Assembly (NCBI RefSeq): GCF_000614025.1
Contig: NZ_BAKF01000017.1
Location: 1-58,030, forward strand
Origin: Prevotella aurantiaca JCM 15754
Lineage (GTDB): Bacteria; Bacteroidota; Bacteroidia; Bacteroidales; Bacteroidaceae
DNA length: 58,030 bases
Reading direction: 5' to 3'
Below, in pieces: positions 3,595 to 47,300 of the stretch (its first letter is position 1; each line of letters begins with the position of its first letter). A model generated the notes under the pieces. It was not told the origin of the DNA. It worked only from the letters and a program-made list of their open reading frames with translations, and made no database searches. A program made the translations under genes and the position numbers.

Positions 3595-3690
3595 ATAATT
3601 ACTAACGAAAATGTAATTACGTTTTATAAAATTCGTAATTACGTTTTTTTAATTTATAATTACATTTTTCTAATTTTTAATTACTTTTTT
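3595..3690 (+). repeat. GTAATTAC/T-tract array A (5 cores)
   Basis: TAATTAC occurs at 3596, 3614, 3636, 3657 and 3678, i.e. with steps of 18, 22, 21 and 21 bp. Copies 2 and 3 read GTAATTACG followed by T4 and T7; copies 4 and 5 are followed by T-rich tracts with a changed flank. The spacing of about two helical turns places the palindromes on one DNA face. The same motif occurs as arrays at three other intergenic sites of this window. Confidence 0.85.
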
Positions 3691-3968
3691 ATCTAACACG
3701 AAATACAAATAACAAATTATGATTTGTGTACTTTTATTGGTTAAATTTCTTCCATTTATTTCCTTGTTTTTTGAGGTGTTATTATAAAAATATAAAGTTC
3801 TTAGCTTCTTTTGTTGATGGTGTTTTGTTTATAGATATCTGTTCCTGTATTTGCGTTTTGCTTTATTGTCTTTAGTCGGATGATAGAAACTTTTAAGAAG
3901 AAGTTTGTCTTTATGCTATTTGATGTAAAAAGTTATAGTGTGCAGTAACATTTTTTATAATAGATGCA

Positions 3969-3998
3969 TTGAATATCAATTAAATTGATTACCTTTGC
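3969..3998 (+). promoter_or_regulatory. Predicted promoter of rfbA/tyrosine kinase
   Basis: TTG (3969-3971), 18 bp, TACCTTTGC (3990-3998). It leaves a leader of about 165 nt before rfbA. Confidence 0.6.
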
Positions 3999-4165
3999 GA
4001 ACAATAAACAGAATAACTCAGAATTGAATGAGGGATGATAAATATTTGCGAGTAGCTATTGGAATATTTCTAAGAAATGTGAAGATTGAGGAAAGCGTAT
4101 TGTTTACTTGTTCTGACTGGGCGTAAAATCAACATAAATTAAGTATCTTAAATAAAAAAACAAGT

Positions 4166-5052
4166 ATGAAAGGTATTGTTCTTGCAGGAGGTTCAGGTAC
4201 TCGCCTTTATCCAATCACAAAAGGCATAAGTAAACAGTTGATACCTATTTATGATAAACCAATGATATATTATCCGATTTCTGTATTGATGCTTGCAGGC
4301 ATAAAGGAAATATTGATTATATCAACACCATACGATTTGCCAGGATTTAAACGCCTTTTGGGAGATGGTCATGAGTTAGGAGTAAGTTTTGAATATGCAG
4401 AACAACCCTCTCCTGATGGATTGGCGCAGGCTTTTATCATCGGCGAGAAGTTATTGGTGATGATTCTGTTTGTTTAGTGTTAGGTGATAATATTTTTTAT
4501 GGAGCAGGATTCACTGGATTATTGGAAGAGAGTGTAAAGAATGCCGAGGAAGATGGAAATGCCACTGTATTTGGTTATTTTGTTAATGATCCAGAACGCT
4601 ATGGAGTAGCAGAATTTGATAAAGTAGGAAATTGTCTTAGCATAGAAGAGAAACCAGAACATCCAAAAAGTAATTATGCTGTAGTAGGATTGTATTTTTA
4701 CCCAAATAGTGTTGTTGAAATTGCAAAAAATATTAAGCCATCAGCAAGGGGAGAATTAGAAATAACCACAGTTAATCAAGAATACTTGGCAAAGCAAGAA
4801 TTAAAGGTACAGACATTGCAGCGTGGCTTTGCATGGTTGGATACAGGTACACATAATAGTCTGTCAGAAGCTAGTACATTCATAGAGTGTATAGAAAAGC
4901 GTCAAGGTTTAAAGATTGCTTGTCTTGAAGAAATTGCTTACAAAAAAGGTTGGATAAGCAACCAACAACTTAGAGAAAATGCTGAGATAATGAAGAAAAA
5001 TGAGTATGGTCAATATCTTCTTTCTCTAGTAGACAACAATATCAATGAATAG
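4166..5052 (+). CDS. rfbA: Glucose-1-phosphate thymidylyltransferase, frameshifted in this sequence
   Basis: RmlA/RfbA joins dTTP and glucose-1-phosphate to make dTDP-glucose, the first step to dTDP-rhamnose and related surface sugars. The start MKGIVLAGGSGTRLYP is the nucleotide-binding signature, followed by YDKPMIYYPI and, after the break, LGDNIFYG, SIEEKPEHPKSNYAVVG and RGFAWLDTGTH, all typical. The frame is interrupted near 4451: the expected GEKFIGDDSVCLVLGDN needs one more T in the AAGTTATTGG stretch. Restored length is about 295 residues, normal for the family. It is followed after 12 bp by the polysaccharide co-polymerase gene, so the two are probably cotranscribed. No other rhamnose-pathway genes are in the window. 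Confidence 0.93.
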
Positions 5053-5064
5053 AATAGTCTTATT

Positions 5065-46587: not shown

Positions 46588-47037
46588 TTAAGGGTGTGGA
46601 TGTCCTCCACCAGCACCATTTTCAGGCTTTTTCTTACCTTTCTTTTTTGGTTTAGCTGCAACTTTAAAGAATTCTACACCATTCAAAGTTCTAAATTCGG
46701 AGGTTGGTGTAAACAATACCTGTGTTTTTGTGATGTGCGTAGAAGGCTTAAATTCTTCTTCCTTCTCAACTGCTTTAGAAGAAAATGTAGGACGGAACGT
46801 GCCGAGCGGACCTGCATCTACTATACTCCCTTGCGAACAAAGGCGGTTTAACACAGTGCGAAATTTGTAGAAAACAGCTGCAATATCAGCTTGACATACA
46901 GTAGATTCTTCCGCCATAATTTCGCAAAGCATGTCGAAATTAACATGTTGCTTTTGACAAACTGGGCTAGCTATGTACATAATAGAGCCTTTCTTTGGAC
47001 CAACGCCCATCTTTCTTTGATTTAAAGAATAATCCAT
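46588..47037 (-). CDS. HU-like DNA-binding protein
   Basis: A 149-residue protein of the Bacteroidota HU-like family: VNFDMLCEIMAEESTVCQAD is the helical dimer part, FYKFRTVLNRLCSQGSIVDAGPLGTFRPTFSSK the beta-arm region, followed by a Lys-rich and Gly-rich tail (KPKKKGKKKPENGAGGGHPHP). Such proteins bind and bend DNA as dimers and several occur per genome; their individual jobs are unknown. It is a single gene. A dyad CTTTCTCC/GGAGAAAG flanks the -7 box, and a GTAATTAC array lies 190 bp upstream. Confidence 0.85.
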   Translation of the reverse strand: MDYSLNQRKMGVGPKKGSIMYIASPVCQKQHVNFDMLCEIMAEESTVCQADIAAVFYKFRTVLNRLCSQGSIVDAGPLGTFRPTFSSKAVEKEEEFKPSTHITKTQVLFTPTSEFRTLNGVEFFKVAAKPKKKGKKKPENGAGGGHPHP

Positions 47038-47100
47038 AAATATTTAAATTAAAAAGTTAATAAATAACGCACTGTTAAATAGTAATTAGCGCCAAAGACG

Positions 47101-47142
47101 CTTTCTCCGTGCGGTTGATGCAAAATTACAAAAAGGAGAAAG
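47101..47142. repeat. Dyad symmetry around the HU-like gene promoter
   Basis: CTTTCTCC (47101-47108) and GGAGAAAG (47135-47142) are inverted copies flanking the -7 box at 47120-47128. Could be an operator, for example for autoregulation. Confidence 0.55.
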
Positions 47143-47151
47143 TGATTCAAA
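47120..47151 (-). promoter_or_regulatory. Predicted promoter of the HU-like gene
   Basis: TTTG (47151-47148), 19 bp, TAATTTTGC (47128-47120) on the minus strand, leader about 80 nt. Confidence 0.6.
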
Positions 47152-47219
47152 ATGATAGGTGGGTACTTTTATGGTGGTTTTTATGGTAGTATAAATGGAA
47201 GATAGTTATATATTTCAAA

Positions 47220-47300
47220 ATTATAATTATATTCTATGTAAAACATAATTACGTTTTTGAAATTCGTAATTACGTTTTTTGGAATTTATAATTACTTTTC
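47220..47300 (+). repeat. GTAATTAC/T-tract array D (4 cores)
   Basis: TAATTAT at 47224 and TAATTAC at 47246, 47267 and 47289; steps 22, 21 and 22 bp. Copies 2 and 3 are followed by GTTTTT(T); copy 4 is followed by TTTT. The first copy is degenerate, as in arrays A, B and C. Confidence 0.85.

What the first reader, a model, noticed from the sequence alone, without database searches (positions are those of the whole stretch)
3595..47300. Four intergenic arrays of GTAATTAC + T-tract with 21-22 bp period (overall pattern)
Sites at 3595-3690, 22650-22710, 32260-32340 and 47220-47300 each contain 3-5 copies of a palindrome (best form CGTAATTACG, then TTTTT). Steps in order are 18/22/21/21, 21/21, 21/22/21 and 22/21/22 bp, i.e. 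close to two helical turns, so all palindromes face the same side and the T-tracts are phased for DNA bending. All four lie outside genes, all have the T-tract on the plus strand side, the outermost 5' copy is always degenerate, and the neighbouring genes are unrelated (polysaccharide start, regulator leader, convergent ends, HU-like/yebC). This looks like a dispersed chromosome-organising or multi-site protein-binding element and not a gene-specific operator. I know of no described element with this layout.
Basis: partly seen in the sequence, partly recalled or inferred. Interest (0 to 1): 0.88.

Follow-up and report, generated by a model that had tools for sequence, protein, structure and literature searches.

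The report
Dispersed four-site palindrome arrays in Prevotella
Scattered through the gaps between genes of this bacterium and of one related species are dozens of copies of a roughly 95-letter DNA element, usually with four mirror-image sites (TAATTA) set 21-22 letters apart; the sites are likely bound side by side by a protein, and the same layout recurs with other mirror-image sequences in related species, one of them very likely a published repeat of unknown function.

Summary
It is an oriented element, usually four TAATTA sites stepped 21-21-22. None of 60 array chains overlaps an ORF predicted by my simple caller. Among 397 other same-genus genomes only G423 (61, control 8) clearly shares it; some lesser excesses were not inspected. 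In five aligned G000-G423 array pairs the TAATTA cores differ at 1 of 96 bases, the rest of the arrays at 79 of 359. Three first-stage points fail: uniform T-tract side, an always degenerate outer copy, and A-tract phasing. Relatives carry the same layout with other palindromes; one family is very likely PINSR, a published P. intermedia/nigrescens intergenic repeat of unknown function. Best reading: a new dispersed repeat family of the PINSR/BrickBuilt kind, kept by selection as a multi-site protein-binding platform (inferred; no protein identified). A passenger repeat moved in trans is the main rival. What looks new is the shared layout, about four palindromes two helical turns apart, across unrelated sequences.

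The parts
3596..3691 (-). TAATTA element 1: cores at 3614, 3636, 3657, 3678 (steps 22, 21, 21) plus an 18-bp outlier copy at 3596; gap between divergent predicted genes
   Evidence: profile 3604-3691 on -, 46.8 bits
22622..22711 (-). TAATTA element 2: cores 22631 (TTATTA), 22653, 22674, 22695 (TTATTA); steps 22, 21, 21; tandem gap before a hemerythrin-LuxR gene
   Evidence: profile 45.2 bits on -
32252..32343 (+). TAATTA element 3: cores 32264, 32285, 32307, 32328; steps 21, 22, 21; between convergent predicted genes (ExbD-like on +, an ORF with no Pfam match on -)
   Evidence: profile 44.6 bits on +
47203..47301 (-). TAATTA element 4: cores 47203 (TAGTTA), 47224, 47246, 47267, 47289; steps 21, 22, 21, 22; between an HU-HIG gene and yebC
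   Evidence: profile 47214-47301 on -, 43.3 bits

Best explanation
The arrays are copies of one oriented, dispersed intergenic repeat of about 95 bp, usually with four TAATTA palindromes stepped 21, 21 and 22 bp, which likely serves as a platform where a dimeric DNA-binding protein sits side by side along one face of the helix. Shown: the anatomy, the dispersal, no overlap with predicted genes, strict step lengths, near-invariant cores beside varying spacers in five array pairs from two species, and the same layout with unrelated palindromes in relatives. Inferred: that a protein binds; that it is a dimer (palindromic sites); that binding is cooperative (two-turn steps); that the effect is on the chromosome near gene ends (packing, folding or insulation) and not on particular genes; and that the element spreads by copying. 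The protein is unknown.
For: Genome-wide excess over the reversed control (166 against 1). 96+40 of 138 steps of 20-23 bp are 21 or 22 although spacers of 26 aligned copies are only 60% identical, cores 96% (cores were the search seed). In five G000-G423 array pairs cores differ at 1 of 96 bases, the rest at 79 of 359, with 9 gaps in 455 columns. Because G423 loci were picked for TAATTA pairs I removed 12 core bases per locus: 1 of 36 against 22% expected, P 0.0015. Six of 29 G423 arrays lie between the same flanking DNA as a G000 array; by a rough guess of 1800 gaps about one is expected. The layout recurs at 22 bp with other palindromes in unselected stretches of G124, G017 and G423. Palindrome arms hardly covary (odds ratio 1.95, P 0.034), which suits half-sites read by a dimer better than an RNA stem.
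Against: No binding protein is known. Distribution is patchy: the nearest relatives by yebC (G124, G017, G203) have TAATTA pairs only at about control level. One locus (L190:3032) is empty in three relatives, and kin such as PINSR and BrickBuilt are regarded as dispersed or mobile repeats. Flanks could not serve as a neutral yardstick: their 275 differences in 1230 and 104 gaps are about what the aligner gives on shuffled flanks (25% and 12 gaps per 100). Both strands fold better than shuffles as single strands (mean z -3.8 and -4.1), so an RNA or hairpin role is not excluded.
Confidence: 0.45

Rival explanations
1. A non-autonomous mobile repeat (MITE- or BrickBuilt-like) without host function: the palindromes are recognition or hairpin sites for an enzyme acting in trans, and the spacing reflects how copies are made.
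For: Many copies of one consensus in unrelated gaps; one locus empty in three relatives; few species carry it; some near-identical segments shared between species (L172/L272 98%, L264/L157 97%); PINSR and BrickBuilt look alike in kind.
Against: No shared ends or terminal inverted repeats seen beyond the array; copies are far from identical yet keep cores and step lengths; six array positions are shared with G423.
Confidence: 0.35
2. A transcribed element: the palindromes act as tandem RNA hairpins near transcript ends (stability, termination or processing).
For: Arrays lie nearer stops (median 218 bp) than starts (482 bp); G124 family B arrays are nearer the upstream stop in 19 of 23 tandem gaps (P 0.003); folding exceeds shuffles.
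Against: Weak covariation of the arms; exact two-turn spacing has no obvious use in RNA; both orientations occur; for TAATTA arrays nearness to the upstream stop is not significant (18 of 26, P 0.076).
Confidence: 0.1
3. Operators of one regulator acting on the adjacent genes.
For: Palindromic phased sites, some upstream of genes, such as the one before the hemerythrin-LuxR gene.
Against: Ten of 41 classifiable gaps are convergent, with no start of a flanking gene facing the array; arrays lie far from starts; the neighbours I identified are unrelated (window only).
Confidence: 0.05

Closest known systems
[quoted passage not shown] consensus figure not held)
   Same: Non-coding, intergenic, many copies (177 and 184), limited to this group of Prevotella, function unknown. 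My family B (TTTTGC-NNN-GCAAAA at 22 bp; about 190 bp, 127 exact pairs in G124) fits its length, copy number and host (P. nigrescens) and is very likely PINSR.
   Different: The TAATTA element has another palindrome, mixed 21/22 steps, a conserved region of about 95 bp and none of family B's conserved ends. The main text held has no mention of '22-bp', 'hairpin', 'stem' or 'tandem repeat'.
BrickBuilt minisatellite/MITE of Porphyromonas gingivalis (PMC4596501: abstract, sections 5 and 9, section 7 part 1 read)
   Same: Species-limited, always intergenic, short direct repeats of about two helical turns (23 nt), dispersed.
   Different: Copy number per element ranges from 1 to 22.8 (here mostly 4), with leader, tail and IS5-like terminal inverted repeats; none of these ends was found here.
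REP/BIME elements, and matS or Noc sites (recalled, not looked up)
   Same: Dispersed palindromes outside or between genes; for matS and Noc a dedicated DNA-binding protein.
   Different: Recalled as GC-rich hairpins (REP) or single sites (matS, Noc), not four sites phased at two turns; no cognate protein known here.

Membership tests
PINSR (for the TAATTA element) | Intergenic, many copies, P. intermedia/nigrescens group | tested here: inconclusive
   Intergenic and multi-copy: met.
PINSR (for the TAATTA element) | 188-bp consensus | tested here: not met
   Conserved stretch about 95 bp; end motif AT[CT]TTTACA of family B in 0 of 120 flanks, background 1 of 356; family B taken as PINSR by inference
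PINSR (for family B) | 188-bp consensus letters | not testable with these tools
   Consensus is in a figure that is not held; length about 190 bp and copy number agree
BrickBuilt / MITE | Terminal inverted repeats with leader and tail | tested here: not met
   No conserved sequence beyond about 15 bp of the array; no shared end motif among the top flank words except the hairpin repeat
BrickBuilt / MITE | Mobility with target duplication | tested here: inconclusive
   One empty site in three relatives, about 250 bp, no clear duplication looked for beyond the alignment
Phased A-tract (curved DNA) element | A-tracts in phase near 10.5 bp | tested here: not met
   Resultant 6.2 against 13.6 in shuffles, z -5.4; triplet power at 10.5 bp z -3.9
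Nucleoid-organising binding site (matS/Noc-like) | Cognate DNA-binding protein | not testable with these tools
   No protein linked to the arrays

The most novel reading that the evidence does not exclude
These arrays are one case of an unrecognised class: oriented intergenic arrays of about four palindromes two helical turns apart, in which the layout is conserved while the palindrome is swapped between lineages (TAATTA; TTTTGC-N3-GCAAAA, likely PINSR; CAGATATCTG; TTACRTGTAA; GTAGT-N3-ACTAC), several kinds sharing one genome, each read by its own fast-evolving protein that packs the Prevotella chromosome.
Probability: 0.28. Interest if true: 0.8.

Novelty: new variant of a known kind. Interest (0 to 1): 0.6.

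Why it matters
PINSR and BrickBuilt were catalogued without a settled mechanism. A rule that does not depend on sequence (about four palindromes, two-turn step, outside genes) and is shared by unrelated families points to what may be selected: a binding platform on one face of the helix. It gives a direct test, bait DNA with four sites against the same sites out of phase. A positive result would give Bacteroidales a dispersed chromosome-binding system; a negative one would constrain how small dispersed repeats are made.

Tried and rejected
A-tract bending: two tests, neither supports it. Palindrome swap at one locus as a rule: at L190:14831 G000 and G423 hold TAATTA arrays while G124 and G017 hold a family B array, but of 50 G124 family B chains (some loci fetched twice) only 2 clearly share both flanks with one of 60 G000 arrays (L295, L340); two more flagged 'BOTH' (L310, L333) do not bracket one gap. 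With an assumed 1800 gaps about 1.7 would be expected, so no trend is claimed. Orientation: 12 of 14 oriented G000 arrays in tandem gaps oppose the genes (P 0.013), but G423 shows 4 same and 2 opposite and family B in G124 13 same and 6 opposite. Viral collection: 39 pattern matches, fetched but not examined; YebC had no viral relative. G094's 18 profile matches look like a different repeat with TAATTACGAATTACG. Family B had no match in the phage collection. Window yebC region against named plasmid records: only 60-80% matches to other genera and one Prevotella, so no species name.

Limits: the profile search scored at most 41 candidates per genome, so 41 hits in G000 is a ceiling. Listings stop at 100 rows, so my 60 chains may miss arrays on the last contigs. 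Genes were called with my own script, not a standard tool.

Full report
Check. The four arrays are real and correctly placed. In the window's genome (G000, 3.0 Mb, 148 contigs; the window is all of contig 132) TAATTAC-N12-18-TAATTAC occurs 38+28 times, its reversed control 0+0; TAATTA-N15-16-TAATTA 166 times, control 1; over all gaps of 5-35 bp 207 against 25. In 342 kb of pieces chosen for holding arrays, nearest-neighbour TAATTA distances are 96 at 21 bp, 40 at 22, one each at 20 and 23.

Anatomy. I found 60 chains (one locus, L183, counts twice). Ten lie within 150 bp of a contig end; of the other 50, 31 have four sites, 11 five, 4 three, 3 six and 1 two. Commonest step patterns among these: 21-21-22 (12) and its mirror 22-21-21 (9); 21-21-21 (4), 21-22-21 (3). 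So the element has a direction. Oriented that way, 34 copies share a consensus over cores and spacers and a short left end, little beyond. Among 26 aligned copies core identity is 96%, spacers 60%, short flanks 50-51%; cores were the search seed. The window's elements read -, -, +, -.

Place. None of 60 chains overlaps an ORF from my own caller; nor do 29 G423 arrays, 48 G124 or 28 G000 family B arrays. In 100 kb of an annotated P. nigrescens record, the 6 places with three or more palindromes at 22 bp lie outside the listed genes, a list known to be incomplete; no TAATTA pair of 15-30 bp occurs there. Of 41 classifiable G000 gaps 26 are tandem, 10 convergent, 5 divergent; all gaps of 300 bp or more in the same pieces: 41 tandem, 12 convergent, 18 divergent. 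Median distance to a neighbouring stop is 218 bp, to a start 482.

Relatives. One search covered 398 genomes of the genus, G000 included. G000 has 166 (control 1), G423 61 (control 8). Smaller excesses, such as G001 (31, 14), G175 (28, 4), G256 (27, 1) and G009 (24, 3), were not all inspected; those of G001 and G009 are other repeats. G248 has two such pairs at one place. The closest by yebC, G124, G017 and G203, are at about control level. Six of 29 G423 arrays lie between the same flanking DNA as one of 60 G000 arrays; one more pair (L196/L266) was seen by eye.

Selection. One search aligned nine pairs. Five with co-linear arrays were counted; L151/L274, L183/L265 and L194/L280 were dropped because their arrays did not align co-linearly, L191:5370/L268 because its flanks are not orthologous. 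One of the five, L191/L277, is homologous on one side only. Cores: 1 difference in 96; rest of array 79 in 359; 9 gaps in 455 columns. Flanks gave 275 in 1230 and 104 gaps, but shuffled flanks give 25% and 12 gaps per 100, so flanks are not evidence. Removing 12 seeded core bases per locus leaves 1 in 36, P 0.0015 at 22%.

Same layout, other letters. Stretches of relatives fetched for synteny, not for arrays, were scanned for any 3+gap+3 palindrome recurring three or more times at one spacing from 14 to 33 bp. G124, 70 kb: 10 entries, all 22 bp, two of them one locus. G017, 60 kb: 10 at 22, 1 at 19. G423, 70 kb: 9 at 22, 1 at 30, with four palindromes (GATATC five, TTACRTGTAA two, two singles). 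G203, 70 kb: none at 21-22, but 8 at 18 and 5 at 27, a 9-bp repeat. Window: 1 at 21, 1 at 18. P. nigrescens, 100 kb: 6 at 22, 1 at 18, 1 at 25. So the rule is not universal. G125 and G181 carry ATTAAT with GTAGT-N3-ACTAC, four copies at 22 bp in the loci read. Family B (TTTTGC-NNN-GCAAAA) has 127 pairs against 0 in G124; with a looser gap 103/3 in G017, 93/4 in G000, 30/3 in G423, 9/2 in G203. All 169 steps in G124 chains and 84 of 85 in G000 chains are 22, where 21-23 was allowed. Its conserved region is about 190 bp; it matches P. nigrescens at 11 places of one record and is very likely PINSR.

Mechanism. Fixed palindromic cores at fixed two-turn steps inside varying spacers are what side-by-side protein dimers would select. 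This is inference; no protein is known. Against it: patchy distribution, a locus empty in three relatives, and kin regarded as dispersed or mobile repeats. Single-strand folding exceeds shuffles (mean z -3.8 and -4.1; family B -5.4), while the arms hardly covary. A-tract bending is not supported.

Known. Papers: PMC4755523 (section 14 and passages); PMC4596501 (abstract, sections 5 and 9, section 7 part 1); the rest as search listings only, which showed nothing on the TAATTA arrays; subscription journals are mostly not held.

Noticed in passing
window 13138-13238: A degenerate 22-bp tandem repeat with palindromes such as CTTTTTATAAAAAG; a G423 array with the same CTTTTTNNNNAAAAG-like unit exists.
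   Followed up: partly
window 58005-58030; L168:3072-3151: A long, nearly perfect hairpin repeat (GTCGTTCCTTAAAAAC...TTTCAGCATAA); its half ends the window's contig, and its ends lie within about 60 bp of 6 of 60 arrays, which may help explain arrays at contig ends.
   Followed up: partly
window 4166-5052: Nucleotidyl transferase domain (PF00483) split over two overlapping ORFs, 4166-4477 and 4477-5052.
   Followed up: no
L256, L257 (G203): Arrays of a 9-bp GTCSGAC unit, several flanked by inverted AACCCAAATCGG / CCGATTTGGGTT ends, MITE-like.
   Followed up: no
L172/L272, L157/L264, L335/L347: Segments 93-98% identical between species that are otherwise about 75-88% identical, each next to an array: possible recent exchange.
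   Followed up: no
G124 family B elements (L304-L340): Spacers come in a few 7-nt kinds (GCGGCTS, CCTACGC, CAATAGG) reshuffled between copies and often complementary within one element.
   Followed up: no
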